Shown: positions 5,668-32,271 of the stretch, one piece after another
How positions within the stretch are numbered: the first letter of the stretch is position 1
How the letters are laid out: each line of letters opens with the position of its first letter
Assembly: GCF_030813715.1 (NCBI RefSeq)
Contig: NZ_JAUSUZ010000001.1
Span: 3,968,001 to 4,032,000 of the forward strand
Direction: 5' to 3'
Length of the DNA: 64,000 nucleotides
Origin: Catenuloplanes indicus
GTDB taxonomy: Bacteria; Actinomycetota; Actinomycetes; Mycobacteriales; Micromonosporaceae
Notes under the pieces: generated by a model
What the model was told of the DNA's origin: nothing
Seen by the model: only the letters and a program-made list of their open reading frames with translations
Database searches by the model: none
Program-made: the position numbers and the translations under genes

Positions 5668-6419
5668 TGGGTGAAGTCCAGCCAGCCGGCCGCTTTCGCC
5701 TGCGCGCTGCCGGGCTGGACCCGCAGCTCGGTGTACTCCGGGGCGCCGTCCGGGCGGGCGGTGACCTTCCAGTCCCCGTCGTGCCAGACCATGTCGGCCG
5801 GGATCAACGCGAGCCGGCTTTGCGTGCCCGCCACCGGCGTGCTGGTCACCATGTAGCCGAGGGTCAGCACCGTCACCCGGTCCGCGGAGACGTCCCGTAG
5901 CTGGTAGGCGTTGATGCCCAGGGTCGCCGATACGCCTTGCGGCACAGGGCCGGACAGCGGAGCTCCGAGCAACTCGCGCAGGCCTATCGCACCGTCGCGG
6001 AACACCTGATCGCTGCCGAGCGAGCCGTCACTCATCACCCGGCCGATCTCCACCGCCCGGTCCAGATCGAGGTTGGAGGAGAACAGCGTCGTGTACTCGA
6101 TCGCCGCCGACACCGCCCCGGCCAGCTCGTGCGGATAGCCCACCGGCACGTCGTCCACCCGCCGGCCTGCCGGCACCAGCCGCAGCGGCCCGCCGCCCGG
6201 CGCAGGGTCCTCGACCACGCCGTCCTCGTGGGCCGGCTCGGAGGCCGACGCCGATGATGCGGTCGGCGGGGCTTCGGCCGCCGGGCCGCCGGCCGGAGTG
6301 CCACCGGCCAGGGCGGCGCCGGCGACCGCGGCCGTGGCGGCGACCGCGATCAGCACCCCGGCCGCCACCCACCACCGCCCTGGGCCGGGAGCGGTCAGGA
6401 ACGTGTTGTGCCCGGTCAT
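5664..6419 (-). CDS. Single-pass transfer-operon protein, VirB8-like candidate
   Basis: A 251-residue protein with one N-terminal membrane anchor (WWVAAGVLIAVAATAAVAGA, about residues 16-37), a Pro/Ala/Glu linker, and a soluble domain of about 170 residues outside the membrane. An anchor followed by one periplasmic-type domain is the topology of VirB8 and of TcpC-type proteins of Gram-positive conjugation systems, which nucleate the channel. I see no diagnostic motif, so VirB8 is an analogy from position and topology rather than homology. Its stop overlaps the TrbL-like start by 4 bases, and its own start is 3 bases after the pilin-like gene's stop. Confidence 0.6.
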   Translation of the reverse strand: MTGHNTFLTAPGPGRWWVAAGVLIAVAATAAVAGAALAGGTPAGGPAAEAPPTASSASASEPAHEDGVVEDPAPGGGPLRLVPAGRRVDDVPVGYPHELAGAVSAAIEYTTLFSSNLDLDRAVEIGRVMSDGSLGSDQVFRDGAIGLRELLGAPLSGPVPQGVSATLGINAYQLRDVSADRVTVLTLGYMVTSTPVAGTQSRLALIPADMVWHDGDWKVTARPDGAPEYTELRVQPGSAQAKAAGWLDFTQ

Positions 6420-6422
6420 GGG

Positions 6423-6725
6423 TCAGCCGACCGCGCTGAAGACGTTGTTGACCATCGGGATCGCGATCGCCGCCGCGACGGTCGCGGCGCCGGATATCAG
6501 GAACGCGCGCTTGCCTTTCTGGTTCTCCTCCGGCCGGTGCGACAGCGCACCCCAGGCCATGTAGCCGGCCGAGGCGAGCGCGATCGCGCCGCAGATACCG
6601 AGCACGCCCCACTTCAGGTAGGCGAACAGCAGCTCGACCCCCTGTGCGCCGCCGGTCGGGTCGATCGGGGCGGGGTTCGGCACGTCCAGCGGGACCAGCG
6701 CGACCAATTCAGGCAGAAGGATCAT
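6423..6725 (-). CDS. Small two-helix VirB2/TrbC-like protein
   Basis: A 100-residue protein with two hydrophobic helices (about residues 31-52 and 68-90) joined by a short charged loop containing RPEENQKGK. Small two-helix proteins heading a type IV secretion operon are typically VirB2/TrbC-type pilins or their Gram-positive counterparts. I start it at the ATG at 6725 because GAGGTG lies just upstream with good spacing; a 16-codon N-terminal extension has no such signal. It is the first gene of the minus-strand transfer operon, transcribed from the promoter proposed at 6787-6856, with a long 5' leader. The pilin role is inferred from size, topology and position. Confidence 0.65.
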   Translation of the reverse strand: MILLPELVALVPLDVPNPAPIDPTGGAQGVELLFAYLKWGVLGICGAIALASAGYMAWGALSHRPEENQKGKRAFLISGAATVAAAIAIPMVNNVFSAVG

Positions 6726-6786
6726 GGGGAACACCTCGCGATCAAGGCGCAGCAGACCTACCCGAAACGGCACGCCACCTGCGGTT

Positions 6787-6856
6787 TTCGCTACAGCGAA
6801 CGCTGTGGGTCGACAGCGTACGTTCCTTGATCACTTTCCTGTCAACTGTGGCGAAC
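6787..6856 (-). promoter_or_regulatory. Transfer-operon promoter with operator
   Basis: Read on the minus strand: a half-site GTTCGCCACAG (6856-6846) abuts a consensus -35 TTGACA (6845-6840); after a 19-base spacer comes TACGCT (6820-6815) as a -10, and 14 bases further a palindrome TTCGCT-N2-AGCGAA (6800-6787) just past the expected transcription start. The same parts in the same order occur at 9326-9400 before the M23 hydrolase gene. The palindrome is the proposed target of the EspR-like regulator encoded next door, which would block transcription of the transfer operon. Confidence 0.65.
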
Positions 6857-6881
6857 AAAAATGTTGTCGCGCCTGTTTGCG

Positions 6882-6895
6882 TTCGCTGCAGCGAA
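6882..6895. promoter_or_regulatory. Operator palindrome before the EspR-like regulator
   Basis: A perfect 14-base palindrome, TTCGCTGCAGCGAA, ending 17 bases before the regulator's ATG at 6913. It has the same arms as the copies at 6787-6800 and 9385-9398 and differs only in the two central bases. The position fits autoregulation of the regulator gene. I could not identify a convincing -35/-10 pair for this plus-strand promoter. Confidence 0.6.
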
Positions 6896-6912
6896 ACGGC
6901 AAGCTCACAGCG

Positions 6913-7377
6913 ATGAACGGGCAGCCGGACGGCGCCGCCGCATCGCCGGACGACGGCGCCCGCGGCTTACTCGCCGCGCGCCTGAACAAGCTGTTCGCCG
7001 AAAAGAAGCGCCCGGACGGCCAGGAGTACAGCTACCGCGAGGTCTCTGAGGCGATCAACGCCGCCGCCGGCGAGAAGGCCATATCCGGCAACTACATCTG
7101 GCAGCTGCGCAAAGGCGAGCGCCGCGAGCCGTCCGCGCGCCGGCTGAAGCTGCTCGCCGACTTCTTCAACGTCGAGATCGGCTACTTCACCGGCCCGGAA
7201 CCCGGCGCCGATGGGCGCGATGAGGACACGCGGTTCGTGACCGCGCTGCGCGACGCGGGCGTGCGGGATATCGCGCTGCGCGCGCACGGGCTGTCGGACG
7301 CGAGCAAGGCGACGATCCTGCAGATGATCGAGATGGCGCGTAAGGCCGAAGGGCTCGGGTCGCCGCCTGAAGCGTGA
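6913..7377 (+). CDS. EspR-like helix-turn-helix regulator
   Basis: A 154-residue DNA-binding protein. From LLAARLNKLFAEKKRP through AISGNYIWQLRKGER to FFNVEIGYFT it follows the layout of mycobacterial EspR (an HTH protein of about 132 residues), and the C-terminal segment VRDIALRAHGLSDASK matches the EspR dimerisation region. EspR binds as linked dimers at spaced sites and acts as a nucleoid-like regulator. Here the gene is divergent to the transfer operon, with palindromes TTCGCT-N2-AGCGAA at its own promoter, the transfer promoter and the hydrolase promoter, so it is probably the repressor of element transfer, much as ImmR does in ICEBs1. The ATG at 6913 was chosen because homology starts soon after; longer readings pass through the operator. 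Shine-Dalgarno sequence weak. Confidence 0.8.
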   Translation: MNGQPDGAAASPDDGARGLLAARLNKLFAEKKRPDGQEYSYREVSEAINAAAGEKAISGNYIWQLRKGERREPSARRLKLLADFFNVEIGYFTGPEPGADGRDEDTRFVTALRDAGVRDIALRAHGLSDASKATILQMIEMARKAEGLGSPPEA

Positions 7378-7582
7378 TCAGGCTGCGCGTTGTAGCAGGT
7401 CAGGGTTGCTGTTCGGGTGCAACGTCGAAGATTTCACAGCGCACCCTATTTCGCTTGGCCGCCCGGTTCGGCGCGTTTTAGGCTGCCCCGCGCGATCGGA
7501 CTCGATCGCGGATGAAACGTGGCGAAATCTCCCGGCGGCCGGTCGCAGACCGCCGGGACGCGTGGCAGGAGCACTCACGGGG

Positions 7583-8107
7583 ATGCGGCACGACAACCGG
7601 ATACGGCGGCGGTGCGCACGCGTCCTCGCGGACCTCGACATCCCTCAGCCGTTCGACTTCGACGTCTTCTGCGCGCACGTGGCTCACACGCGTGACCGGC
7701 CGCTGTATGTCCATCCGCTGCCGAAGCCACTCACCCCGGCACACCCCTACGGTGCGACCCTGCGCACGAGGACCGCCGATCACATCTTCGTCGAGCAGGC
7801 CACCAGCGCCTGGCACCGGACCGTGATCGGCTGCCACGAGGTCTCTCACCTACTCCTCGGCCACCATGGCGTGCTGACCGATCTCGTCTCCGCGCTCGCA
7901 CCGAGCCTCGACCCGACCACCATCGACGCCCTCCTCGCCCGGCAGAGCTACGACACGGTGCACGAGCAGGAAGCCGAGACGTTGGCCGGCATGATCCTCA
8001 ACCTCGCCTACCCGCTGCCGGTACAGCCGCGTCAGCCGGTCGGTGAGCACGTGCTGACGCACCGGCTTGCCGACACGCTCGGCCTGCCGGACGAGCGGGT
8101 CACATGA
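7583..8107 (+). CDS. ImmA/IrrE-type zinc metalloprotease
   Basis: A 174-residue protein with the zinc-protease signature HEVSH at residues 85-89 followed by LLLGHH, and acidic residues E130/E132 in a helix EQEAETLAGMIL that could give the third metal ligand, as in ImmA/IrrE peptidases. In ICEBs1 the ImmA protease cleaves the HTH repressor ImmR to release transfer genes; the same pairing of HTH regulator then HExxH protease is seen here, so antirepression is a reasonable inference. The final codons overlap the ATG of the next gene (8104-8107). The ATG at 7583 starts just before the conserved region. The 205 bases between the regulator and this gene show no other gene. Confidence 0.75.
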   Translation: MRHDNRIRRRCARVLADLDIPQPFDFDVFCAHVAHTRDRPLYVHPLPKPLTPAHPYGATLRTRTADHIFVEQATSAWHRTVIGCHEVSHLLLGHHGVLTDLVSALAPSLDPTTIDALLARQSYDTVHEQEAETLAGMILNLAYPLPVQPRQPVGEHVLTHRLADTLGLPDERVT

Positions 8108-9336
8108 ACGCCCTCGACGCCGTCGTCCTGGTCTTCCTCTGGGCCGCGGTGCTGGTCCGGCTGCCGGGTGCGGCACATGACCGGCGGCGGCGGATCCTGT
8201 GGCTGGCGTTCACCGCGATGGCGATCGCGGTCAGCGCCCGCACGCCCACTGTCGCCGGACTCATCGACCAGCACACCGGCTGGCCCGGCACGTCCGTGCT
8301 AGTCGGCCACGCCTTCACGGTGCTCGCCGCGACCGGGGCGTTCGAGTTCGTCACCGACCTGCGCGAAACCGTCCGCATCCGCCTGCCCCGCCTGGACATC
8401 TGGCTGCTGATCGCCGCGATCACCGTCCTCGCCCTCACCGTGCTCTTCTTCCAAATCCCTCCACCACCCGAAGGCCTGTTCATCGACCGGGCACCCGGCC
8501 AGGTCCTGCCGACGCTGTATCTGGTGCTGTTCACCACGCACCTCGGCTTCGCCATGGGCGCCATCGGCACCCTCCACGCCGGCGCCCTCATCACCTCCCG
8601 CCGCACCGCACCGCCCTGGATCCGCACCGGATTCGCCCTCAATGCGGCCGGCGGCATCACCGGCATCGCCTACGCCACCAGCGTCGACAGCTATCTGCTC
8701 TACCGGCTCACCGCACCCGGCCTCGGCCTCGGCCTCGGCGACACCACCGTCCTCGCCCTGCTCGACCCCCTCGAAGCCGTCGCGATCCTGCTCATCGCCG
8801 CCGGTCACGGCGTCCCCGCGATCCCCGCCGCACTCGGCACCGCCCGGCAATGGCTCACCCTCCTCCAGCTCCGGCCGCTCTGGGCGGCGCTGACCAAAGC
8901 CCACCCGGACGTCGTGTTCGGCGAGCGCCCGTCGCTGCTCGACGACCTCACCGACCGGCACGCCCTGCGCTACCGGCTCATCCGCCGCACGATCGAGATC
9001 CGCGACGCCACCCTGCACCTGCGCGGGCATGTCGACGACGACACCCGTCGACGCCTCACCGCGGCGTTCGCCACCATCGGCTGCCCTCGCCGCCGCGCCG
9101 CGGCGACCGAAGCCGCGTTCATCCGCCTCGCCCTGCACACCCACCACCTCGGCCGCGCCCCGGCACCCCGCCCGGACTACGTCCCGCCCGGTGGCCACGA
9201 CCCTGACACCGAGGCTGCCTGGCTGCGCACCGTCAGCGCCGCCTACCTCCGCCCCGCCACCCGCCGCACCGCTACCGCCCACGCCTCACAGCGGCGCGCC
9301 ACACCGCGCATCCCCACCCAGCGCCGTTCGCTGTAG
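8104..9336 (+). CDS. MAB_1171c-type membrane protein
   Basis: A 410-residue protein with about seven hydrophobic helices in the first 260 residues and a soluble C-terminal domain of about 150 residues (from LTLLQLRPLWAALTKAHPDV). This matches the actinobacterial MAB_1171c family, annotated as putative transporters of unknown substrate and often encoded after a small ImmA/IrrE-type protein and an HTH regulator, as here. Translation is coupled to the protease by a 4-base overlap. The C-terminal domain starts with a short motif (WxAL..A.P) and an acidic GERP-SLLDDL stretch seen in the family. It may be a membrane sensor rather than a carrier, since no transport motif is visible. Confidence 0.7.
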   Translation: MNALDAVVLVFLWAAVLVRLPGAAHDRRRRILWLAFTAMAIAVSARTPTVAGLIDQHTGWPGTSVLVGHAFTVLAATGAFEFVTDLRETVRIRLPRLDIWLLIAAITVLALTVLFFQIPPPPEGLFIDRAPGQVLPTLYLVLFTTHLGFAMGAIGTLHAGALITSRRTAPPWIRTGFALNAAGGITGIAYATSVDSYLLYRLTAPGLGLGLGDTTVLALLDPLEAVAILLIAAGHGVPAIPAALGTARQWLTLLQLRPLWAALTKAHPDVVFGERPSLLDDLTDRHALRYRLIRRTIEIRDATLHLRGHVDDDTRRRLTAAFATIGCPRRRAAATEAAFIRLALHTHHLGRAPAPRPDYVPPGGHDPDTEAAWLRTVSAAYLRPATRRTATAHASQRRATPRIPTQRRSL

Positions 9337-9400
9337 TTGACAGCCGAGCATGATCATCCCGTAGAGTCCCGCCACGCCAGCCTGTTCGCTACAGCGAACA
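9326..9400 (+). promoter_or_regulatory. M23 hydrolase promoter with operator
   Basis: Half-site GTTCGCTGTAG (9326-9336, overlapping the end of the upstream gene) abuts -35 TTGACA (9337-9342), then a 19-base spacer and -10 TAGAGT (9362-9367), then palindrome TGTTCGCT-N2-AGCGAACA (9383-9400) just downstream of the expected start point. The layout repeats that of the transfer-operon promoter at 6787-6856, so the two are probably co-regulated. Confidence 0.65.
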
Positions 9401-9422
9401 GCGGATGGATGCGGGAGGCGAT

Positions 9423-10466
9423 ATGGCGGGCGCGATCATAAAACGGCTCGTCGTCGCGGCCGCGTCCCTGCCGATGATCGCGGCCCTCGGCATCGCCGTC
9501 GCCAGCTCCGGCGCCGGCGTACTCGACCCACAGGCCGCCGCGTGCGTCATCACGCCATCCGATTCGGCCAGCACCGGCGGATCGCCGATCAGCCTCGCGG
9601 ATCTCACCGGCACCCAGCTGGCCAACGCGAAGATCATCTACACAGTCGGGGCCGAGCGGAACCTGCCCCACCGGGCTGGCGTCATCGCGCTCGCCACGGC
9701 CATGCAGGAGTCGAAGCTCTACAACCTCGCCGTCGCCGTCGACCACGACAGCCTCGGCCTGTTCCAGCAACGCCCCAGCTCCGGATGGGGCACACCCGCG
9801 CAGATCCTCGACCCGGTCTACGCGACGAACAAGTTCTACGACAAACTCATCACCATCGAGAACTGGCAGACGCTACCGGTCACCGTCGCCGCCCAGCGCG
9901 TCCAGCGCAGCGCCTACCCGGACGCTTACGCGCAGTGGGAAGCTCTCGCCACCGACCTGGCCGCGAGCCTCGCCGCCGGGCTCGGCCGGGACACCACCTG
10001 CGCCCCGGCCGTTACCGGCGAATGGGTCCGGCCGGTCAACGCGCCGGTCGGCTCGGGTTTCCGCACCGACAGCCGGCCCGACCACGACGGCGTCGACCTC
10101 TCCGGGGCCCGCGGCACCGTCATCGTCGCCGCTTCCGCCGGTACCGTCCTCGTCGTCACCTGCAACATCGTCCCCGCCAGCCACGGCTGCAATCAAGACG
10201 GCTACCCCGGCCTCATCGGCTGCGGCTGGTACACCGACATCCAACATGCAGGCGGCATCATCACCCGCTACTGCCACATGCTCACCCGCCCCAACGTCAC
10301 CGCCGGCCAACACGTCACCGCGGGCCAGCCGATCGGTCTCATGGGCAGCAGCGGGAACTCCTCCGGCCCTCACCTGCACTTCGAGATCCACCTCAACAGC
10401 GACCGCTCGTCACAATCAGCAGTCGACCCCGTGCCGTTCATGCGATCCGTCGGTGTCGAACTCTGA
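9423..10466 (+). CDS. Secreted transfer-associated peptidoglycan hydrolase (lysozyme-like plus M23)
   Basis: A 347-residue exported cell-wall enzyme. Residues 6-30 form a hydrophobic signal/anchor segment. A lysozyme-like region follows (ATAMQESKLYNLAV with a candidate catalytic Glu, then DSLGLFQQRPSSGWG), typical of wall-hydrolase domains in actinobacterial transfer loci. The C-terminal part is an M23 peptidase with zinc-ligand motifs HDGVDLSGARGT and HLHFEIH. Two-domain lytic enzymes of this kind open the wall for conjugation machinery. The start is the ATG at 9423 preceded by GGGAGG; an ATG 18 bases upstream is less well placed. It has its own promoter sharing an operator with the divergent transfer operon, which supports a transfer role. 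Confidence 0.8.
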   Translation: MAGAIIKRLVVAAASLPMIAALGIAVASSGAGVLDPQAAACVITPSDSASTGGSPISLADLTGTQLANAKIIYTVGAERNLPHRAGVIALATAMQESKLYNLAVAVDHDSLGLFQQRPSSGWGTPAQILDPVYATNKFYDKLITIENWQTLPVTVAAQRVQRSAYPDAYAQWEALATDLAASLAAGLGRDTTCAPAVTGEWVRPVNAPVGSGFRTDSRPDHDGVDLSGARGTVIVAASAGTVLVVTCNIVPASHGCNQDGYPGLIGCGWYTDIQHAGGIITRYCHMLTRPNVTAGQHVTAGQPIGLMGSSGNSSGPHLHFEIHLNSDRSSQSAVDPVPFMRSVGVEL

Positions 10467-11482: not shown

Positions 11483-12748
11483 TCAGGCCCCGGCGGAGAT
11501 GTCGTCGAGCAGGAACTGCACGGCGGTCTCCGCGCGGTCGCACAAGCCGGCGTAGATGTCGGCGGCCTCGTGCAAGAAAGCGCGGGCCTGGTCCAGGTCG
11601 TCGCAGGTGATGGCGAGGTCGCCCAGGTAGTGCAGGGCCAGAGCGCGGCCGCGCGGACGGTCGAGTTTCGTCATCTCACGCAGGGCGGTGACGAGCACGA
11701 TCCGGGCATGGGTGTGATCGCCGAGCTCGGCCAGGGCACGGCCAGTCTCTACCCCGACCAGGGCGGCGCGGTAGGGGTCGGTGCCGGCGCGGGCCAGCAT
11801 GTCGCTGGCGGCGGCGAGGGCGTCCAGCGCCTCGCCCGGCTGGCGGGCGTTGATCAGCGTGACGGCGCGGTTGAGCGCGGACAGGCCCTCACTGCGGTAG
11901 TCACCGTGCGCCGCGTACACGCCGCGGTTGACCCGCAGCAGCTGCAGCGCGTGAGTGACATTGTTCTCGGCCTGTTCAAGCATGGCCAGGCCCTCGCTAG
12001 CAGAGGCGGTGGCGATCACCCGCGTACGGTCGTGGGGGATGCCGGCGGCGGCCTTGATCGCCTGCTTGAACGCGTCTGCGGCATGCGGGTGATTGCCGAA
12101 GTCGAAGGCGCGCCAGCCGTAACGGCGCCAGGCGTGGCTGAGCCAGGCCGGGTCGCCGACCCGTTCGGCGCAGTCGAGGGCGAGTGCGTCGGCGTCGCGC
12201 CGGTCGTCGGGGAAACCGCGGGCCTCGAACAGCGGCCGGATCGCGTCCAGCAGCGCCCACACCATGTGCGGGTCGTCGGTGCTGCGGGTGCCAGCGAGCG
12301 TGAGCAGGTTGACCCGCTCGGCGTCGAGCCAGTCCAGCGCCGCACCAGGCGTAGCGAACTCGATCGCGTCCGGGCCGCAGTGGGTCAGGGCCGCCGGGGG
12401 CGGGGTCCGGTACGGGGCGGCGGCCGTGCTGGCGGCACGGGCGCGGGCCAGATACCACTCGTTGATCCGTGCGGTGAACAGCTGCTGCGTGGGGTCGGCG
12501 GCGAGGTCCGTAGCGGCGCGGGTGCGGGCCTGGCTGTATATCCGCCATCTGCTGCCGGGCGCAGGGCGTACGAGGTCGGCCCGCACGAGCTGGTCGATGT
12601 GTGCGGCGGCGACGTGGTCGGTGGTGGCGAGCGCGGCGGCTAGCACCGGCAGGGTCGGCTCAGGGCCGGGGTGGGCGGCGAACGCCCGCGCGCAGGCGCG
12701 CAGCGGGGCGGGCAGGGTGTGGTACCGGTCGGCAAAACAGCCGGTCAT
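11483..12748 (-). CDS. TPR protein resembling the C-terminus of the STAND protein at 14607
   Basis: A 421-residue protein that begins with a winged-helix-like segment (TLPAPLRACARAFAAHPGP...) followed by repeated helical pairs of TPR type. From that winged helix onward it is clearly related to the NB-ARC protein at 14607-16610: both contain ADALALDCA, AHAWRR/SHAWRR, EGLSALN, and DRPRGRALA-HYLG at matching spacing. It has no P-loop or NTPase domain. It therefore looks like a paralogue that lost, or never had, the nucleotide switch and kept the sensor arm. ATG at 12748 has GAGGAA upstream with good spacing; the longer reading has no such site. A role in regulation or partner binding is only inferred. 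Confidence 0.65.
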   Translation of the reverse strand: MTGCFADRYHTLPAPLRACARAFAAHPGPEPTLPVLAAALATTDHVAAAHIDQLVRADLVRPAPGSRWRIYSQARTRAATDLAADPTQQLFTARINEWYLARARAASTAAAPYRTPPPAALTHCGPDAIEFATPGAALDWLDAERVNLLTLAGTRSTDDPHMVWALLDAIRPLFEARGFPDDRRDADALALDCAERVGDPAWLSHAWRRYGWRAFDFGNHPHAADAFKQAIKAAAGIPHDRTRVIATASASEGLAMLEQAENNVTHALQLLRVNRGVYAAHGDYRSEGLSALNRAVTLINARQPGEALDALAAASDMLARAGTDPYRAALVGVETGRALAELGDHTHARIVLVTALREMTKLDRPRGRALALHYLGDLAITCDDLDQARAFLHEAADIYAGLCDRAETAVQFLLDDISAGA

Positions 12749-12830
12749 GGCATTCCTCGAAAATGGTGGGAGACCGAAGGCGGCGCGCTGGCGGAGGTGT
12801 CGGACAGCGGTATGGAGGTGCGGATCGGGA

Positions 12831-13967
12831 TCAGCTGGCGGGCTGGCTCGCGTGAGGGGAAGCGTCAGCGGGCGGGGTTTCCGCGTCAGCGCCGGGCCGC
12901 CGTGTGGCGGCGGCGGGTTCGGGCGGCGCCCAGGCCGGCGGGCCGCTGTGATCGCGCCACTGGTGGAGGGCATGGGTCATCATGGCGACGACCGCCACGT
13001 AGAAGACGGTGGATGTGATCCATGCGGTGGGCGCGATCCAGTTGCCGGCGTCGGCCGCGGACAGTGAGGGGTCCAGCGGTGTCAGCCCGCCGATGAGGAT
13101 TTGCAGGGTAAGCAGGGTGCAGTTGTGCACGACGTGCTTGACGATCGCGGCTTCGAGTCCGCCCGTGTGGACGGTCAGCCAGCCGATCAGCAGCCCATAG
13201 ACGAGCAGCCCTGCGCTGCCCGGTCCGGGGCCGGTGCCGTGCAGCGCGGTCCAGATGATCGCCTGGACGACGATGCCCGGCCACGGGGACAGGAATCTGA
13301 CCGCTTGCAGCAGCCAGCCGCGCGTCAGGTACTCCTCGGCCGCGGACTGGAACACGGTCAGGACCAGGATGATCAGGCCCCCGGCCAGCACATACGTCCA
13401 CGGCTCGGCACGGTGCGGCAGCGCGGGCTCGGCACCGGCCGGCACGTCGGGCGGGAAGATCAGCGCCAGCACGATCAGCTCGATAAAGAGCACGATCTGC
13501 GAGGCGAGCGCGGCGGCCAGGCAGAGGCCGAGCCACGGCCACCGTAACCGGCCGGCGACCGAGGACACGTTTCCCGGCCGGCGCCGCTCGATGAACCGCG
13601 CGGCCAGCAGCACTGCGGGGGCGAGCATGGCGATCGCGCACAAGCTGACCGCCATCGCGGTCCCGCCGCCGAGGACCGGGATCTGCTGCTCGGGCAGCGC
13701 GCGGACGACCAGGCGGAGCAGGCGCGGGACGGCGAGGTAGACGGCGGCGATCGCCGCGGTCGCGGCGAGCGTGCGCCACCACCGCACCGGGAAGCTGATC
13801 CGGTGATACGGCATCAGCATCACTCCGGGAAAGTGCCGGAACGGGCTCGCGGGCGCGAACAGATACGGCCGTAGCAGGTCCATTCCGAGCCGGGTGGTAG
13901 CGCGCCGAGACCCGGCGGGCGCAGATACGCCGGGCGAAGGCGCGGAGACGACGTCGTTGTCGATCAT
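12831..13967 (-). CDS. CPBP-family intramembrane metalloprotease
   Basis: A 378-residue membrane protein with about seven to eight hydrophobic helices. It carries the three motifs of CPBP (CAAX protease and bacteriocin-processing, Abi) enzymes: AAEEYLTRGW (EExxxR), a later ALHGT, and KHVVHN, which together supply the acidic and His active-site residues within the membrane. Bacterial members cleave membrane-embedded or peptide substrates and some give self-immunity to bacteriocins. No obvious peptide substrate lies beside it; the nearest RiPP genes are 14 kb away. Its tail is a Pro/Ala-rich cytoplasmic stretch. The ATG at 13967 has weak ribosome-binding signal and internal starts near 13880 or 13818 are possible. 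Confidence 0.75.
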   Translation of the reverse strand: MIDNDVVSAPSPGVSAPAGSRRATTRLGMDLLRPYLFAPASPFRHFPGVMLMPYHRISFPVRWWRTLAATAAIAAVYLAVPRLLRLVVRALPEQQIPVLGGGTAMAVSLCAIAMLAPAVLLAARFIERRRPGNVSSVAGRLRWPWLGLCLAAALASQIVLFIELIVLALIFPPDVPAGAEPALPHRAEPWTYVLAGGLIILVLTVFQSAAEEYLTRGWLLQAVRFLSPWPGIVVQAIIWTALHGTGPGPGSAGLLVYGLLIGWLTVHTGGLEAAIVKHVVHNCTLLTLQILIGGLTPLDPSLSAADAGNWIAPTAWITSTVFYVAVVAMMTHALHQWRDHSGPPAWAPPEPAAATRRPGADAETPPADASPHASQPAS

Positions 13968-13993
13968 GATGAGGGGTGTGACTCCTGAAGGGG

Positions 13994-14013
13994 CACCCGG
14001 GAGTTCCCGGGTG
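13994..14013. promoter_or_regulatory. Palindrome before the CPBP gene
   Basis: A perfect inverted repeat CACCCGGGA-GT-TCCCGGGTG lies 27 bases upstream of the CPBP start, in the 167-base gap after the small gene at 14135. It could be an operator or a short hairpin terminator; there is no T-run, so I favour an operator. No second copy was noticed in the window. Confidence 0.35.
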
Positions 14014-14134
14014 ACGGGTGAGTGGTTGCACGCGCCGTGCGAGGCGGTGCGGGATGGTCACATCGCTGGTCAGCAGGACCGGCGGGCGTCGGGCTGTCGG
14101 GGTGGTGGCGACAGGCAGCCGGTCCGGGCCGGTC

Positions 14135-14542
14135 TCACCGTGGGTGGAGTCGCAGCCCGGCGGTGGGAGGCAGTAGGCAGGACAGCACCAGCGGGCTGAC
14201 CGCGGCGGTCGTTGCCGTCGCGGCCGGCGCCCGGACGGCGTGCCACAGCACGGAGATCGGCGAGTCCGCGGAGAGCACGACGGCGGCCAGGCGCACGCGC
14301 TGGTGCATCCAGCTGGACCGCACGGCGCCGGCGGGCCAACACGGCACGCGTGACGCCGGCCAGGAAGCACCGGTCGCCTCCGGTCGGGTGGCCGCCGTAG
14401 GCACGCGCACGGTGGAGAACACCACGGTCCGCGGCACCGGCAAAGCGGGATCGGGGTCCGGCGGTATGGCGGCGCACTGTATGCCGGCCGAGGTCAGCAC
14501 CGTGATCAGCAGGCGGGTGCCTGCCGTCGCAGGGGAAAACAT
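14135..14542 (-). CDS. Small hypothetical protein
   Basis: A 135-residue reading frame with strongly GC-rich third codon positions, as expected of a real gene here. It has a hydrophobic N-terminal stretch (RLLITVLTSAGIQCAA), and a C-terminal half of moderate hydrophobicity (VLWHAVRAPAATATTAAVSPLVLSCLL) that may cross the membrane once or twice. No family is recognised. No Shine-Dalgarno sequence precedes the ATG. It sits between the STAND gene and the CPBP protease gene on the same strand, with 64 and 167 base gaps. It may be an invented frame, but the opposite-strand frames overlapping it look weaker. Confidence 0.4.
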   Translation of the reverse strand: MFSPATAGTRLLITVLTSAGIQCAAIPPDPDPALPVPRTVVFSTVRVPTAATRPEATGASWPASRVPCWPAGAVRSSWMHQRVRLAAVVLSADSPISVLWHAVRAPAATATTAAVSPLVLSCLLPPTAGLRLHPR

Positions 14543-14606
14543 GAGGGGAGATGTCCAATCAGCACGACCGGGTCCGGCCGGGTGGGCAGGCGGATGGCCC
14601 GGTCGG

Positions 14607-16610
14607 TCAGGCGTCGTCGAGGGTGGCGAGCGCGGTGCGGACGGTGTGCTCCTCGTGGTCGCCGAGATCGCCGTAGAGCGCGGCGGCGATTTCCAGCCGG
14701 GTGCGGGCGCCGTCGCGGTCGCCGCGTGCCTGGGCGAGCTCGCCCAGGTAGTGCTGGGCGAGGGCGCGGCCGCGGGGACGGTCGAGGGCGGTCATCTCCT
14801 GCAGCGCGGCGTCCAGCCAGGTCTGGGCGGCGTCGTGGCGGCCGAGACCGGTCAGCGCGCGCCCGTACTCGAGACCGATCCGGGCGGTGTTGAAGGGATC
14901 AGTACCCGCGGTGCGAAAAAACAGGTGCCGGGCGTCGTCGAGCACGGGCAGCGCTTCCTCGGGCCGGCCGGCGCCGATCAGCGCGATCGCGTGGTTGAGC
15001 GCGGACAGCCCTTCCCGGCGAAAGTCGCCTCGGGCGAGGTACTGGCCGCGCTGGGCTTCGATCAGCTCCAGGGCGCGGGCGTAATCGCCGTAGGCCTGCG
15101 CGACCGCGGCGAGGCCTTCACGGGCGGTGGCGGTGCCGAACACGCGGGTGTTGTCGTCGGTGATGTCGGCGGCCGCGTCCACGGCGTTGGCGAAGGCTGC
15201 GGCGGCGCCGTCGAGGTTGCCGAGGTCGTAGCAGTTCCAGGCCAGCCGCCGCCAAGCGTGCGCGATCCAGGTCGGGTTCTTGACGCGCTGCGCGCAGTCC
15301 AGGGCGAGCGCGTCGGCGTGCGCACGGTCGTCGTGCCGACGCCGGAAGATGAACAACGCCCACATCGAGTCGATGAGCAGCCACACCAGCCGCGGATCGT
15401 CCGCCGCCCGGACCTCCGCGAGTGCGAGGAGGTTCTCCCGCTCGATCTCCAGCCACTCCAGCGCCGCCGCCGGGTCGGGAAACTCCACCTCGTGCTCGGG
15501 CGAGAAGTGGACGAACTCCGCCGCGTACGGCTCCCGGTACGGCGTCGCGACGGCGTCGGCGGCCCGGACCGCGGCGAGGTACCACTCGCTGATCCGGCCG
15601 AGCAACTGGTGCCGCTGCTGGGGGTCGCGGCCGGCCTGGACGACGGCGTGCCGGCGGATCTGGTCGTGCATCCGGTACCGGCCGGCCGGTTCCTCCTCGA
15701 CCAGGCTCGCCTGGACCAGCCGCCGCAGATGCCGTTCCGCGACAAGCAGTGAGGTGTCGAGAGCGGCGGCGATGACCGGCAGCCCGACGTCCGGGCCGGG
15801 ATGCAGGCCGAGGGCCTGGTAGCAGATACGGGCGCCTTCGGGCAGGCCGGCATAGCTGGCGGCGAACGCGTTCATGATCGCGTCTTTCTGGTCGGCGAGC
15901 ACGTCGGCGTGCCCGTGGTGGACGGTGGTAAAGGTGGTGGTGGCGTCGCGCGGGAGGGTGGCGAGGCCGGCGCCGGTGACGGTGAGCGCGAGCGGCAGGC
16001 CCGCGCAGAAGTCCAGCAGCCGCCCGGTGGCGGCGTGGTGGGCGTGCGCGCCAGCGACCTGGTGCAGCAGCAGGGCGGCCGCGTCGTCCGGTAGCGGCGG
16101 GACGGCCAGAAGCCGGACGCCGGTGGTGATGAGCCCGGGGCGCCGGTCGCGGATGGTAATCAGCACGAGGCTGGCCGGCCCGGCGGGGATCAGCGGCTCG
16201 ATCTGGTCCGGGCCGGCCGCGTTATCCAGCAGCAGCAGCAGGATCCGCCGGTCGGCGGTGATCGTGCGCCACAACCCCGCCTGCTCGTCCACCCTGGCCG
16301 GGATCCGGCCGTCGGGAACGCCGACGGCGCGCAGCATCGCGCTCAACGCGTCCCCGGGCGTGCGAGGGCCCGCGGGGTCGTGCGCGCCGAGACGGACGAA
16401 GATCTGCCCGTCCGGGAACCGATCTGCGGCGTGGTGCGCCCAGCGCACGGCCAACGCGGTCTTGCCGATGCCGCCCATCCCGACCAAGCCCACCAGCGGT
16501 GACGAGTGCCGCTCACCGTCGGCGAACCCGTCCAGCGCCGTCAGCAGGTGCTCGCGGTCGACCCAGTCCGCGGCGGTCCGGGGCAGTTGCCGCGGCATAT
16601 GTCTACACAT
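14607..16610 (-). CDS. STAND NTPase with NB-ARC and TPR domains
   Basis: A 667-residue STAND-type signalling ATPase. Residues 38-55 hold the P-loop GMGGIGKT; the Walker B stretch RILLLLLDN lies at about 122-130; a winged-helix region follows around residues 240-320 (GLHPGPDVGLPVIAAAL...), and the last half is TPR helical repeats with motifs ADALALDCA, AHAWRR and EGLSALNHA. Such proteins sit inactive with ADP and oligomerise when the repeat arm senses a ligand; in actinomycetes many are antibiotic or development regulators (AfsR relatives), others act in defence. No effector domain is fused at the N-terminus. The start at 16610 or the second ATG at 16598 is possible; the gene begins 11 bases after the upstream stop, so it is in an operon with 16621. 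Confidence 0.8.
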   Translation of the reverse strand: MCRHMPRQLPRTAADWVDREHLLTALDGFADGERHSSPLVGLVGMGGIGKTALAVRWAHHAADRFPDGQIFVRLGAHDPAGPRTPGDALSAMLRAVGVPDGRIPARVDEQAGLWRTITADRRILLLLLDNAAGPDQIEPLIPAGPASLVLITIRDRRPGLITTGVRLLAVPPLPDDAAALLLHQVAGAHAHHAATGRLLDFCAGLPLALTVTGAGLATLPRDATTTFTTVHHGHADVLADQKDAIMNAFAASYAGLPEGARICYQALGLHPGPDVGLPVIAAALDTSLLVAERHLRRLVQASLVEEEPAGRYRMHDQIRRHAVVQAGRDPQQRHQLLGRISEWYLAAVRAADAVATPYREPYAAEFVHFSPEHEVEFPDPAAALEWLEIERENLLALAEVRAADDPRLVWLLIDSMWALFIFRRRHDDRAHADALALDCAQRVKNPTWIAHAWRRLAWNCYDLGNLDGAAAAFANAVDAAADITDDNTRVFGTATAREGLAAVAQAYGDYARALELIEAQRGQYLARGDFRREGLSALNHAIALIGAGRPEEALPVLDDARHLFFRTAGTDPFNTARIGLEYGRALTGLGRHDAAQTWLDAALQEMTALDRPRGRALAQHYLGELAQARGDRDGARTRLEIAAALYGDLGDHEEHTVRTALATLDDA

Positions 16611-16620
16611 GTGGTCTACG

Positions 16621-17922
16621 TCAGTCCCTTCGTCTGGTCGGATGCCGCCGGGTCCGGGACGCGGCGGCGATCAGCGCGTTGACGGCGCCGGCCTCGTGGT
16701 GGCTTCCGTGCGCGGTGAACAGCCGTACGGCGGCGTGCAGCCGGGTCAGGGCCAGCGCGGTGTCGCCTTGGGCAAGAGCGAGCTCGCCCAGGTGGCGCAG
16801 GGCCTGTGCCTGCCCGGACAGCGCGTGCAGAGTCGTCGTCGTGACCAGCGCGCCTACCAGCAGCTCCCGCGCCGTGTCGTGGTCTCCGCGCGCGATGAGG
16901 ATCTCGCCGTGCGCGATCTGGACCAGCGCCCGCGCGTACGGATCGGCTGGCGTGCCCGGGGCGTCCAGCAGCGTCTCGGCGGCGGTAAGCGCGGCGAGAG
17001 CCTGGTCGAGTTCGCCGCGCGCGCGGTGGACCGCCGCGAGGTGCAGCTCGGTCAGCGCGGCCCGGCGCAGATCGTGCAGGGACCTGAACACCAGGCGCTG
17101 GGGTGTGAGCAGGTAGTACGCCTCGTCGTGCGCGCCCATGCTGTTCGCGGTCATCGCCATCGCCTCGGTGGCCGCGGCGATGCCCCACATGTCGTGGCTG
17201 CGGGTGGCGGCGTCCCGGCTGGCGCGCAGCAGCGCGAGCGCCTGGGTCTGCTCGCCCTGCGCGTGCAGGGTCTCGCCGTAGCGCAGCAGCGCCTGCGCGA
17301 TCCGCCTCGGGTCTGCGAGCTGTTCCGCGCAGTCCAGCGCGGTCTGCTCCAGCCGACGCCGCAGCACGGGCGTCCCGCGCAGCAGGTACAGCGGCCACAT
17401 GGCGTCAGCGATCTGCCAGGCCAGCAGCGGCTGCCGGCCGGCGAGGCCGGTGACGACGGCGGCGAGGCTGTCCTGTTCGGCCTCCAGCCATTCCAGGGCC
17501 GCGTCGTAGCTCGGCAGCCGGACAACATCGGCGGGCAGGCCGGTGATCCGGATCCGGTCGCGGCGCCGCCACGGGGTGAGGACCGTGTCGGCGGTATGGG
17601 CGCCAGCGAGGTACCACTGCGCGAGCCGCGCCCGAAGCTCGTCCCGGTCAGCCGCGGTGTCGGCAATAGCGCACGCCTGCTGACCGATCTCGGCGGGCAC
17701 GCCATAGCGGGCAGGCATACCGTCCCCGGCCGGGGCAGCGGCGGCCAGGCCCGCCGCCACGAGCTGCGCGCATCGCCGGGCGGCGGTGCGCGGGGTGCAG
17801 CCCACGATCGCGGCGGCGGCGTCCACGGACAGGTCCGGGCCGGGGTGACAGACCAGCAGCCGGAAGCACCGCGCGGTCTCCCGGTCCAGCCCTTCGTATC
17901 CGGGCAGCGCGAGATCCGCCAT
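16621..17922 (-). CDS. TPR protein with winged helix, no NTPase
   Basis: A 433-residue helical-repeat protein. It opens with a segment (GYEGLDRETARCFRLLVCHPGPDLSVDAAAAIVG) alignable to the winged-helix part of the neighbouring NB-ARC protein, followed by TPR-type helices with GETLHAQGEQTQALALL and HLGELALAQGDTALAL. No P-loop is present. It is thus the second protein in this block that corresponds to only the C-terminal part of the NB-ARC gene next door. I start it at the ATG at 17922, which has GGGAGG twelve bases upstream; a GTG at 18063 would add 47 low-complexity residues and overlap the HAD gene by 23 bases. Role unknown, possibly regulation. Confidence 0.6.
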   Translation of the reverse strand: MADLALPGYEGLDRETARCFRLLVCHPGPDLSVDAAAAIVGCTPRTAARRCAQLVAAGLAAAAPAGDGMPARYGVPAEIGQQACAIADTAADRDELRARLAQWYLAGAHTADTVLTPWRRRDRIRITGLPADVVRLPSYDAALEWLEAEQDSLAAVVTGLAGRQPLLAWQIADAMWPLYLLRGTPVLRRRLEQTALDCAEQLADPRRIAQALLRYGETLHAQGEQTQALALLRASRDAATRSHDMWGIAAATEAMAMTANSMGAHDEAYYLLTPQRLVFRSLHDLRRAALTELHLAAVHRARGELDQALAALTAAETLLDAPGTPADPYARALVQIAHGEILIARGDHDTARELLVGALVTTTTLHALSGQAQALRHLGELALAQGDTALALTRLHAAVRLFTAHGSHHEAGAVNALIAAASRTRRHPTRRRD

Positions 17923-18040
17923 CACCGGCGCCACCTCCCGCACCCGGCCGGCCGTGCCTTCGGCCCCTGGTATCGCGCGTGCCGGGCCTGCGCCGTGCCC
18001 GGCGGCCGGTGCCCGGGGCGGGCGGCGTGCAGCAGCCGGG

Positions 18041-19081
18041 TCATCGCGTCGTGCCTCGTTCACCGGGCGCGAGCGCCACCGCCGGGTCCGGGCAGCGGCA
18101 GTAGTCCAGCGCCAGGTCCAGCGTTGAGGTGTGCACGACCTCGCCTGCGCCGGACCGGTCGGGGCAGGGCGTGGCAGTGCACAGGTGCACCGCCGGCCAG
18201 CCGCCGTGTGCCGCGAGCCCGAGGTCGTGGACCGCGCTGTCGCCGACGACCATGCACACCCGCCGCCGTGTGGCGTCGAGTGCCGCGGTCAGTGCTGCCG
18301 CGAACCCCGGATCCGATTTCGGTGCGCCGACCACCTCGGAGACGAAGATGGCGTCGAAGTAGCCGCGCAACCCCGCGGCGTCGATCTTGCGGTATTGGTG
18401 CGCGGCCAGGCCGTTGGTCGCCAGCCACACCACGTGACCGGCTCCGCGCAGGGTGTCAAGGAACTCCCGTACGCCGGGAAGCGGCCGCAGTAGCCCGGCA
18501 CGGATCCGCCGGAAGCTTGCTGCCGCTTCCGGCGCGAGGCGCGCATCGGCGCGCAACGCGGTCAGCGCCACCGACCAGACCCGCTCGTCATGCCCGCTCA
18601 GGGACGCCGCGACCGGCTCCAGCAGACCGGCCGTGGCCGGCAGCCACAGCGCCTCCCATGAGCTGACGTAGGTCAGCGCCCCGGTGCGGCGGTGCGGATG
18701 TGCGCTCCACGCCCGCTGAGCGTGCTCCAGCACGATGCTGGTCGACATCGCATCGGCGGGCAGGCCGAGCCCGGCAAGGGTGAAGCTGACGGCCAGCCGG
18801 GCGGCAGGCACGTCGTGAATGAGCGTGTCGTCAAGGTCGACGACCACCACATGACCGCCACCGGTCCGCACGCCGGCCTGCTGGGCGGCGCGTAGCAGCG
18901 TCAGGTATTCGCGGCGGACCGTGGCGGCCGGGCCGACCCGGCGAGAGACCGCCGGCGGCAGCACCTTCTCGACCGCGAGCCACCACCACATCGACATCCA
19001 CGCACGCGTCTGCTGCCAGCGCAGGATCGCGTCGGCCGTCACCGGCTTCCCGCGGTGACGGCGGATTCGGGGATGGTTCAT
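18041..19081 (-). CDS. HAD-family hydrolase
   Basis: A 346-residue HAD-superfamily phosphohydrolase. Motif I is DLDDT at residues 82-86 (nucleophile Asp and acid/base Asp), motif II is WLATNG, motif III the Lys in APKSDPG and motif IV VVGDS, in the usual order with a helical cap between. About 75 residues precede the first motif, with a tryptophan-rich patch (MSMWWWLAVEK) not typical of simple phosphatases. Substrate cannot be told. It overlaps the upstream methyltransferase-like gene by 4 bases (19078-19081), so the two are co-translated, and together they may modify the same small molecule. Confidence 0.75.
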   Translation of the reverse strand: MNHPRIRRHRGKPVTADAILRWQQTRAWMSMWWWLAVEKVLPPAVSRRVGPAATVRREYLTLLRAAQQAGVRTGGGHVVVVDLDDTLIHDVPAARLAVSFTLAGLGLPADAMSTSIVLEHAQRAWSAHPHRRTGALTYVSSWEALWLPATAGLLEPVAASLSGHDERVWSVALTALRADARLAPEAAASFRRIRAGLLRPLPGVREFLDTLRGAGHVVWLATNGLAAHQYRKIDAAGLRGYFDAIFVSEVVGAPKSDPGFAAALTAALDATRRRVCMVVGDSAVHDLGLAAHGGWPAVHLCTATPCPDRSGAGEVVHTSTLDLALDYCRCPDPAVALAPGERGTTR

Positions 19082-28870: not shown

Positions 28871-29119
28871 ATGCTCGAGGTACTCGATCGTCTGAGCGTC
28901 AGCACCGGAAGCGGCGTTGCTGACACACACGACCTGCACAACGCATCACCGACCGCGCTCGCCGAGGGTGACGCGCTCACGGACGACGACTTCGTGCTCG
29001 ACATGACGGTCGTGGAGTCCACCACCCCGCTGGTAACGCTGATGTGCAGCACGAGCGACGGCTGCGGCAACAGTTGCAGCACCAGCGCGTGCACGACCAA
29101 GGCGAGCGAACCGCTCTGA
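28871..29119 (+). CDS. FxLD-family lanthipeptide precursor
   Basis: An 82-residue precursor. The leader carries the FxLD signature FVLD at residues 41-44, in an acidic context (LTDDDFVLDMTVVES), which is the docking sequence for the dehydratase. The C-terminal core (about residues 50-82) has four Cys at 59, 65, 69 and 74 with many Ser and Thr, giving four possible (methyl)lanthionine rings, and one Asp-Gly at 63-64. The cut site between leader and core is not visible. ATG at 28871 follows AAGGG and GAGGAG. Its gene lies 57 bases after the methyltransferase stop and a strong hairpin follows it at 29126-29161, a usual way to raise precursor expression over the enzymes. Confidence 0.9.
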   Translation: MLEVLDRLSVSTGSGVADTHDLHNASPTALAEGDALTDDDFVLDMTVVESTTPLVTLMCSTSDGCGNSCSTSACTTKASEPL

Positions 29120-29125
29120 TCCTAT

Positions 29126-29161
29126 CCGGCACGGTGCCCTATCCATCGGGCACCGTGCCGG
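29126..29161 (+). terminator. Attenuator-like hairpin between precursor and LanB genes
   Basis: Perfect 14-base arms (CCGGCACGGTGCCC at 29126-29139 and its complement at 29148-29161) with an 8-base loop, 6 bases after the precursor stop. There is no long T-run, so it likely lets some transcription through to the dehydratase gene and makes the precursor transcript more stable, giving an excess of peptide over enzyme. Confidence 0.6.
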
Positions 29162-29208
29162 AGCCCTCGCAAGCCACCGTTGCCCGGCCCATGTCGAGGA
29201 GGCGACTC

Positions 29209-32200: not shown

Positions 32201-32271
32201 CGTTCGAGAAGGTCACACACCGGCTGGCCCGCGCCGCCGCTCAGCGAGCCCTCGCCCGAGGCCAGCGATGA
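29209..32271 (+). CDS. LanB-type lantibiotic dehydratase
   Basis: A 1020-residue tRNA-Glu-dependent dehydratase for class I lanthipeptides. The N-terminal half (RRVTPFGVFAGV, RRPYNENVARVP, then PRVRYRRTILAPARW) is the glutamylation domain; the remaining part holds the SpaB_C-like elimination domain (FDDIIRRLP, LSFVPYQDQPGRYGRGEALTAAESVF). It converts Ser and Thr of the precursor core to dehydroalanine and dehydrobutyrine. Start: GTG at 29209 with AGGAGG seven bases upstream, in preference to ATG 29191. It overlaps the LanC gene start by 4 bases (32268-32271), so stoichiometry of the two is coupled. Confidence 0.9.
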   Translation: MTVTPIFRCSDAIIVRATTAPADLDAPSELRMADDAAVRREGAEWLKSAWSRADVRDAIMLASPSLAAHLDRVTHADGDAPVKDLRRAVLSLAGYVLRWQRRVTPFGVFAGVALADGGAASASVGLRHRAIARADSEWLLAVISVLERHVALRQRLYVVADSTSVVRDGRLITALRAERGGGKAVPLREASVRFTRPVQAAMRFAVVPRRFDDLVAALGETFPAARTEQMVAVVEGLLHQGFLLTNMRPPMTVADALPHLIGTVITAGGRDLNDVAPILEELEAIRDLLQEHNMADDPVRAAELRGMLAPRMRGLVSDASQVLAVDTRLDAHIRIPRQVLIEASQAADVLLRVSTKPFGSTAWQDYRSRFRARYGQGALVPVRELVSDSSLGFPAGYLGAPRAHPSWRGVTERDAVFLALVQRAALDSLDEIVLTDADVDALSVGESADVIPPSRIELGVAVHARSLAALDQGHFRVRFAAAPGTPTSMAGRFIHLFAGPDRARLTAACAASSPDDDAVAVQLSFPPRRPYNENVARVPQVLPDVVPLAEHPTGRAIALDDLAVTADADQMYLVQISTGRRVIPNIPHALDTVVQSPPLARFLAEVADARTAVFGPFDVGAARTLPYLPRVRYRRTILAPARWLLNSTDVPADQADRWEARLQTWRERWRVPARIVLCHGELRQPLDLDHHLDQALLRYRLVQAGRVELYEDADVEDHGWIGRPAELLIPMTAVSPPRRSLPDLSPPGEQFLPGGSTIIQARLAGNPARFDDIIRRLPAFTTSLTGVVGRWWILRQRDLVRVDADQHLILVLRLHALDQHPAAAAALAEFAAGLMAQGLPGQLSFVPYQDQPGRYGRGEALTAAESVFGADTTCAVAQIGVAATTGIPAQALAAVSMTRIAAAFAPDAATGYQNIARHVPRQTGPSDRALNQHTLTLVDTTRTTPAPPWAAELISAWEARDAALGRYFRLLARQRNPAGVLPTLLRDHHVRALGLDPAFEKVTHRLARAAAQRALARGQR

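What the first reader, a model, noticed from the sequence alone, without database searches (positions are those of the whole stretch)
6787..9400. A three-site operator set and twin promoter layout around an EspR-like regulator
The same palindrome TTCGCT-N2-AGCGAA occurs at 6787-6800, 6882-6895 and 9385-9398. At the first and third, a half-site GTTCGCNNNAG abuts TTGACA, followed by exactly 19 bases and a TA...T -10, then the palindrome after the start site. Two promoters thousands of bases apart share this arrangement, so it looks like a designed switch by the EspR-like protein, with the ImmA/IrrE protease as antirepressor. A long 19-base spacer may also require bending by the regulator.
Basis: partly seen in the sequence, partly recalled or inferred. 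Interest (0 to 1): 0.75.

Follow-up and report, generated by a model that had tools for sequence, protein, structure and literature searches.

The report
Repressor operators controlling conjugation gene promoters
A soil actinobacterium carries a DNA-transfer gene cluster whose two main promoters share the same built-in binding sites, most likely for a neighbouring repressor that a neighbouring protease can switch off; the same layout recurs in another genus with a matching change in each site.

Summary
TTCGCT-N2-AGCGAA occurs only three times in the 9.25-Mb genome, all within 2.6 kb. Two promoters carry GTTCGCNNNAG|TTGACA-N19-TANNNT followed by the palindrome. Across 354 Micromonosporaceae genomes this composite occurs six times: twice each in this genome, Catenuloplanes japonicus and G157 of another genus. 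In G157 five sites lie in equivalent places, with TCCGC instead of TTCGC in each. That concerted change is the strongest evidence for a real operator set; binding is untested. The promoters precede a conjugative type IV operon and a divergent M23 peptidase gene; between them lie an EspR homologue, an ImmA/IrrE-like protease and a MAB_1171c membrane protein. Best reading: an ICEBs1 ImmR/ImmA-like conjugation switch built on an EspR-fold repressor. Two corrections: the 'half-site' may be a degenerate whole operator whose second half holds the -35; and the 19-bp spacer is no sign of regulator-driven bending, since it occurs at 11 of 16 M23 and 7 of 16 pilin promoters compared (window included), also where no EspR-like regulator was detected.

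The parts
6423..6773 (-). pilin-like conjugal transfer protein, first gene of the leftward transfer operon (then a 251-aa protein, SCO6881-like, SCO6880 family, VirB4-like, VirD4-like, a 259-aa protein and a DnaB-N protein, reaching left of the window to about -3102)
   Evidence: pilin, SCO6881 and VirB4 matches are below the curated cut-offs; SCO6880 and VirD4/TraG matches are above; block shared with C. japonicus at 92% identity
6787..6800 (.). palindromic operator O2-L (TTCGCTACAGCGAA), just downstream of the predicted start of the transfer-operon promoter
   Evidence: GTCCGCTACAGCGGAC at the equivalent place in L084
6815..6845 (-). predicted promoter PL of the transfer operon: TTGACA (6845-6840), 19-bp spacer, TACGCT (6820-6815)
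   Evidence: start site not mapped
6842..6856 (-). operator O1-L, GTTCGCCACAGTTGA, one intact arm plus AG; the second half overlaps the -35 hexamer
   Evidence: GTCCGCTGCAGTTGAC in L084
6882..6895 (.). palindromic operator OR (TTCGCTGCAGCGAA), ending 17 nt upstream of the regulator start codon; predicted autoregulation
   Evidence: GTCCGCCTACGCGGAC, ending 16 nt before the regulator ATG, in L084 (that site lacks the CT-N2-AG centre)
6913..7377 (+). EspR homologue (XRE-type HTH plus C-terminal domain), predicted repressor
   Evidence: 66 of 121 family genomes searched hold a relative
7562..8107 (+). ImmA/IrrE-like metalloprotease (HEVSH), predicted antirepressor
8104..9336 (+). MAB_1171c family putative transporter with DUF6545 C-terminal domain; possible signal input (inference)
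9326..9340 (+). operator O1-M, GTTCGCTGTAGTTGA, second half overlapping the -35 hexamer
   Evidence: GTCCGCTGTAGTTGAC (minus strand of 3093) in L084
9337..9367 (+). predicted promoter PM of the M23 gene: TTGACA, 19-bp spacer, TAGAGT
   Evidence: start site not mapped
9385..9398 (.). palindromic operator O2-M (TTCGCTACAGCGAA) downstream of the predicted start site of PM
   Evidence: GTCCGCTATAGCGGAC in L084
9405..10466 (+). M23 peptidase gene of the transfer locus; ATG 9423, preceded by GGGAGG, is the likelier start
   Evidence: a homologue (in some loci only its first half aligned) is divergent from the pilin in the 16 other loci compared

Best explanation
A repressor switch for conjugation genes. 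Shown by sequence: two promoters, of the leftward type IV transfer operon and of the rightward M23 peptidase gene, each carry one operator-like site whose second half contains the -35 hexamer and one palindrome just after the predicted start site; a further palindrome precedes the regulator gene. Inferred: dimers of the EspR-like protein bind the five sites, cover the -35 and the start of both promoters and of its own gene, perhaps bridging paired sites as EspR is reported to do, and keep transfer off. A signal, possibly through the neighbouring membrane protein or DNA damage, activates the ImmA-like protease, which cleaves the repressor and releases both promoters together.
For: Three palindromes in 9.25 Mb, all here. 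The composite half-site/-35/19/-10 pattern occurs 6 times in 354 genomes, only at these two promoters in three genomes, control 0. In the locus of a second genus, whose regulator is 43% identical, five sites lie in equivalent places with TTCGC changed to TCCGC in each; of 37 loose palindromes in that genome the form GTCCGCTNNAGCGGAC occurs twice, both here. No substitution inside the sites against C. japonicus, with 6 in 207 aligned intergenic bases (weak, few changes). Full-length EspR homology; the arms fit TTCGC[TC][GA], one base from the published EspR consensus TTTGC[TC][GA] (passages of PMC3315491). A scan of 80 dyad cores in 54 non-redundant upstream regions of EspR-like genes ranks CT-N2-AG first, 8 of 54 against 2.1 expected; two of the eight are the window and L084, which suggested the motif. 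Protease gene adjacent, HEXXH invariant, weak IrrE/PprI fold match. Operators over the -35 and after the start site are a usual placing for repression (established knowledge).
Against: No binding, start site or cleavage was tested. Only two independent lineages share the full layout; C. japonicus is a near copy (92%). Three related loci with an EspR-like regulator in the same place (L041, L043, L044) do not match the composite pattern; L044 has one palindrome of another sequence, TCGACTACAGTCGA type, between pilin and regulator and no second copy in 12 kb. The L084 site before the regulator lacks the CT-N2-AG centre. 46 of 54 upstream regions of EspR-like genes show no CT-N2-AG dyad. The Streptomyces homologue L037 has the same residues ISGNYIWQLRKG in the presumed recognition helix (label recalled) but a dyad with other arms. 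O1-O2 spacings, 55 and 58 bp here and 51 and 59 bp in L084, are not in constant helical phase. No promoter of the regulator gene itself was recognised (which scans 16-18-bp spacers only).
Confidence: 0.75

Rival explanations
1. The EspR-like protein is an activator of the two long-spacer promoters, realigning the hexamers much as MerR does, and the protease turns transfer off.
For: Both promoters have a 19-bp spacer, whereas TTGACA/TANNNT pairs in this genome peak at 17 bp (11 of 36 matches; 19 bp in 7 of 36, two of them these; reversed control 8 in all). EspR is reported to be needed for espACD activation (passages of PMC3315491).
Against: The sites overlap the -35 and lie after the start, not between the hexamers. 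The 19-bp spacer is present in related loci where no EspR-like regulator was detected.
Confidence: 0.15
2. The palindromes are sites of another protein, or parts of attachment or transfer-origin structures, and the neighbouring EspR-like gene is coincidental.
For: No binding evidence; the loose form GTYCGCN4GCGRAC occurs 64 times in this genome.
Against: The exact form is confined to this locus; the arms are changed together in a second lineage; a site lies just before the regulator gene; the arms resemble the EspR consensus.
Confidence: 0.07
3. The 19-bp spacer belongs to the transfer locus itself: an ancestral, intrinsically weak or separately activated promoter class, on to which the EspR-like operators were later layered in two lineages. 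This complements the best explanation rather than competing with it.
For: Sixteen loci compared, window included, L034 dropped as near copy: M23 promoters have 19 bp in 11 and no other spacing from 13 to 23 (about 0.12 expected per spacing); pilin promoters have 19 in 7 (one, L047, a poor match), 18 in 3, 17 in 1. A scan restricted to 16-18 bp finds no promoter in 6700-9500.
Against: The cause of the spacer is unknown; promoters are predicted, not mapped; five M23 and five pilin promoters gave no match; four of the eleven M23 promoters come from one genus (g11), so they are not independent.
Confidence: 0.7

Closest known systems
ICEBs1 ImmR/ImmA switch (Bacillus subtilis)
   Same: HTH repressor and a metalloprotease of the ImmA/IrrE type controlling conjugation genes (ICEBs1 facts from passages of PMC6540685).
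   Different: The repressor is an EspR homologue; the sites lie at T4SS and M23 promoters; a MAB_1171c membrane protein follows the protease; no site-specific integrase or excisionase gene was identified among the genes scanned.
EspR of Mycobacterium tuberculosis
   Same: Full-length sequence homology and best fold match; arm sequence one base from its consensus; a predicted site before its own gene, as EspR has (passages).
   Different: EspR is reported as nucleoid-associated with hundreds of sites (passages); here perfect sites number three. The EspR consensus is a 7-mer, here the sites are 14-16-bp palindromes.
RcoLS20 of plasmid pLS20 and PrgX of plasmid pCF10
   Same: A repressor on paired operators at conjugation promoters, with looping reported (passages of PMC6540685).
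   Different: Different signals, and not shown to be related proteins; looping is untested here.

Membership tests
EspR family of XRE regulators | Full-length homology including the C-terminal dimerisation region | tested here: met
   3qf3_A, E 1.9e-19, residues 18-148; E 1.8e-6, TM-score 0.46 on the query
EspR family of XRE regulators | Binding consensus TTTGC[TC][GA] | tested here: inconclusive
   Arms are TTCGC[TC][GA], one base off; binding not tested
EspR family of XRE regulators | Global nucleoid-associated binding | not testable with these tools
   Only three perfect sites in the genome hints at local action
ImmA/IrrE proteases (PF06114, Peptidase_M78) | HEXXH metal site and downstream glutamate | tested here: met
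   H92, E93, H96, E135, E139 invariant in 35 aligned members
ImmA/IrrE proteases (PF06114, Peptidase_M78) | Match to the Pfam profile and fold | tested here: inconclusive
   No Pfam match for the window protein; 14 of 35 members match at E 0.01; four best fold matches are IrrE/PprI at E 2.5e-3 to 1.1e-2, none below 0.001; no PDB sequence match
ImmR/ImmA-type conjugation switch | Repressor-like sites at conjugation promoters, next to repressor and protease genes | tested here: met
   (by sequence only)
ImmR/ImmA-type conjugation switch | Protease cleaves the repressor | not testable with these tools
   inference only
T4SS conjugative element | VirB4-like and VirD4-like ATPases and a relaxase | tested here: met
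   VirD4/TraG over cut-off; VirB4 E 9.1e-16 but below the curated cut-off; TrwC relaxase over cut-off, about 39 kb left of the window edge
T4SS conjugative element | Site-specific integrase and attachment sites | tested here: inconclusive
   None among the genes scanned (only an IS21-type transposase in the G157 flank), but not all genes were scanned; no tRNA gene in the window or its left 40 kb; boundaries not determined
MerR-type long-spacer promoter | Operator between -35 and -10 | tested here: not met
   Sites overlap the -35 and lie after the -10

The most novel reading that the evidence does not exclude
The EspR-like regulator, ImmA-like protease and MAB_1171c membrane protein form a portable sensing-and-derepression cassette of actinobacteria that was slotted between the divergent promoters of a transfer locus, with operators built on to both promoters; the mycobacterial virulence regulator EspR would then be a relative of protease-controlled, operator-specific repressors.
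Probability: 0.35. Interest if true: 0.65.

Novelty: new variant of a known kind. Interest (0 to 1): 0.5.

Why it matters
It predicts, down to the base, how a little-studied class of actinobacterial conjugative loci may be kept silent and released, and links the EspR family, which I know mainly from one mycobacterial virulence regulator, to an ImmA-type protease switch. Two lineages with different arm sequences give a ready-made specificity test. Searches of the open-licence paper library for EspR-like with conjugative, Catenuloplanes with conjugative element and MAB 1171c each found no paper; subscription papers were not searched.

Tried and rejected
Considered and rejected: chance; regulator-induced bending as the reason for the 19-bp spacer; MerR-like operator placing. 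A simple code from recognition-helix residues to operator arms was looked at and dropped: L037 has the window's helix but other arms. A scan of viral contigs gave one weak relative of the regulator; plasmids gave 72 records, all under 60% identity, not followed further. A search of 397 genomes drawn from the order found pilins at E up to 1e-8 in 4 genomes, all of this family and one of them this genome. The single genome-contig scan gave 4 loci, one being the C. japonicus locus. hmmsearch of the protease alignment against PDB sequences gave nothing. No promoter of the regulator gene was recognised. A first dyad test on 36 partly redundant regions was replaced by the larger non-redundant one.
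Full report
Check of the observation. A pattern search of the whole genome, 9,247,015 bases in 2 contigs, finds exactly these three; the reversed pattern finds none. Given three sites, the chance that two fall within 2.6 kb of the third is about 3e-7 if places are random (arithmetic). Both promoter descriptions are exact. The first promoter is on the minus strand.

Surroundings. The leftward promoter precedes a type IV transfer operon: pilin-like protein, a 251-aa protein, SCO6881-like, SCO6880-family and VirB4-like proteins (only the SCO6880 match is above its curated cut-off), then, beyond the window edge, a VirD4/TraG coupling protein and a protein with a DnaB N-terminal domain. The rightward promoter precedes an M23 peptidase gene. 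Between them lie the regulator (6913-7377), an HEXXH protease (7562-8107) and a MAB_1171c family putative transporter. The genus is Catenuloplanes: the same-genus genome G006 has the contig length and coordinates of C. japonicus NRRL B-16061. The block from -3102 to 10474 is 92% identical in the two species, while the three other genomes of the genus searched have no match to the pilin. A TrwC relaxase gene lies about 39 kb left of the window edge, some 46 kb from the pilin gene, against some 20 kb in G006 and G157.

The regulator. phmmer against PDB sequences gives EspR over residues 18-148 at E 1.9e-19. The AlphaFold2 model (mean pLDDT 73.9) finds EspR first, with a moderate TM-score of 0.46 on the query. 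The published EspR consensus is TTTGC[TC][GA], with inverted repeats at its own promoter and looping between sites (passages of PMC3315491). The arms here are TTCGC[TC][GA].

The protease. The window protein has no Pfam match, but 14 of 35 aligned members match PF06114, HEXXH is invariant in the 35, and the four best fold matches of its model (mean pLDDT 78.4) are IrrE/PprI, at E 2.5e-3 to 1.1e-2, none below 0.001. Of 68 fetched loci with EspR-like genes (one place present twice, L032 and L137), 47 have an ImmA-like gene in the stretch, 37 a MAB_1171c-like gene and 32 both.

Comparative test. Of 354 genomes of the family, 33 match the pilin profile, 17 of them strongly. I compared these 17 loci, the window among them. 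In the other 16 an M23 gene, or at least its first half, is divergent from the pilin gene. An EspR-like gene was found between them in L034, L041, L043, L044 and L084; in the other eleven tblastn at E 1e-3 detected none. L084 (genome G157, another genus) has the full regulator-protease-membrane protein set at 43, 49 and 38% identity. Its two promoters read GTCCGCTGCAG|TTGACA-19-TATCGT...GTCCGCTACAGCGGAC and GTCCGCTGTAG|TTGACA-19-TACCGT...GTCCGCTATAGCGGAC, and GTCCGCCTACGCGGAC ends 16 nt before the regulator ATG. So five sites occupy equivalent places, and TTCGC is TCCGC in each; the fifth lacks the CT-N2-AG centre. The composite pattern GTYCGCNNNAG-TTGACA-N19-TANNNT occurs in 3 of 354 genomes, twice in each, always at these two promoters; control 0. 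This is the main evidence that the sites belong to one regulator. It rests on two independent lineages.

The half-site. In the four promoters of the window and L084 the bases before TTGACA are AG, as in the inner part of the palindrome's second arm; the ten other promoters printed (outside window and L034) lack it. I read the element as a degenerate operator whose second half contains the -35 hexamer. This is an inference.

The spacer. TTGACA/TANNNT pairs in this genome favour 17 bp (11 of 36; 19 bp in 7 of 36, two being these; reversed control 8). In 16 loci, window included and L034 dropped as a near copy, 11 M23 promoters have exactly 19 bp and none another spacing from 13 to 23; at the pilin promoters 7 have 19 (L047 poorly), three 18 and one 17. 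L040, L045, L046, L048, L081, L082 and L083 are among them, and no EspR-like gene was detected there. The spacer is therefore better seen as a trait of the transfer locus than of this regulator. Its cause is open. Four of the eleven M23 cases (L045, L046, L082, L083) come from one genus.

Wider family. In a scan of 80 dyad cores in 54 non-redundant upstream regions (from 77 loci, 76 with a regulator hit), CT-N2-AG came first with 8 loci against 2.1 expected and a maximum of 6 in 100 shuffles. Two of the eight are the window and L084, so the independent support is 6 of 52; with 80 cores tried this is modest, and 46 of 54 regions lack the dyad. An earlier run on 36 partly redundant regions gave 10 against 1.15, with the same caveat and three near-identical Streptomyces loci.

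Mechanism and comparison. The arrangement fits repression: sites on the -35 and just after the start of both promoters and before the regulator gene. It would work like ICEBs1, where ImmA cleaves ImmR (passages of PMC6540685), and perhaps like pLS20 and pCF10, where paired operators are looped (same source). The O1-O2 distances, 55 and 58 bp here and 51 and 59 bp in L084, are not in phase. Another role for such clusters is on record: the S. coelicolor cmd genes, some of which resemble SCO6878, SCO6880 and SCO6881, affect sporulation (passages of PMC2782261); the coupling protein and relaxase favour conjugation here.

Verdict. It is a new variant of a known kind of switch.

Noticed in passing
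G000, window coordinates about -10489 to -6187 (L087:9511-13813): GajA and GajB homologues (Gabija anti-phage system) between the relaxase and the transfer operon; this stretch has no aligned counterpart in the C. japonicus comparison.
   Followed up: partly
G000, window coordinates -39861 to -36649: The TrwC relaxase reading frame here is about 1070 aa against about 1510 aa in G006 and G157; it may be shortened.
   Followed up: no
M23 promoters of L040, L041, L043, L044, L045, L046, L081, L082, L083: A fixed 19-bp spacer at M23 promoters of transfer loci across several genera, including loci where no EspR-like regulator was detected; cause unknown.
   Followed up: partly
L042, about 5950-6150: By eye, a short stretch resembling a piece of an EspR-like regulator lies between pilin and M23; it looks like a decayed gene.
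   Followed up: no
window 29044-32268: Lantibiotic dehydratase (Lant_dehydr_N and _C), with further large ORFs downstream.
   Followed up: no
window 11483-18063: Three proteins with TPR matches, one with an NB-ARC match below cut-off, to the right of the M23 gene.
   Followed up: no
L084:8223-8318: ARAGORN calls a tRNA-Tyr inside the SCO6881-like gene; probably spurious.
   Followed up: no
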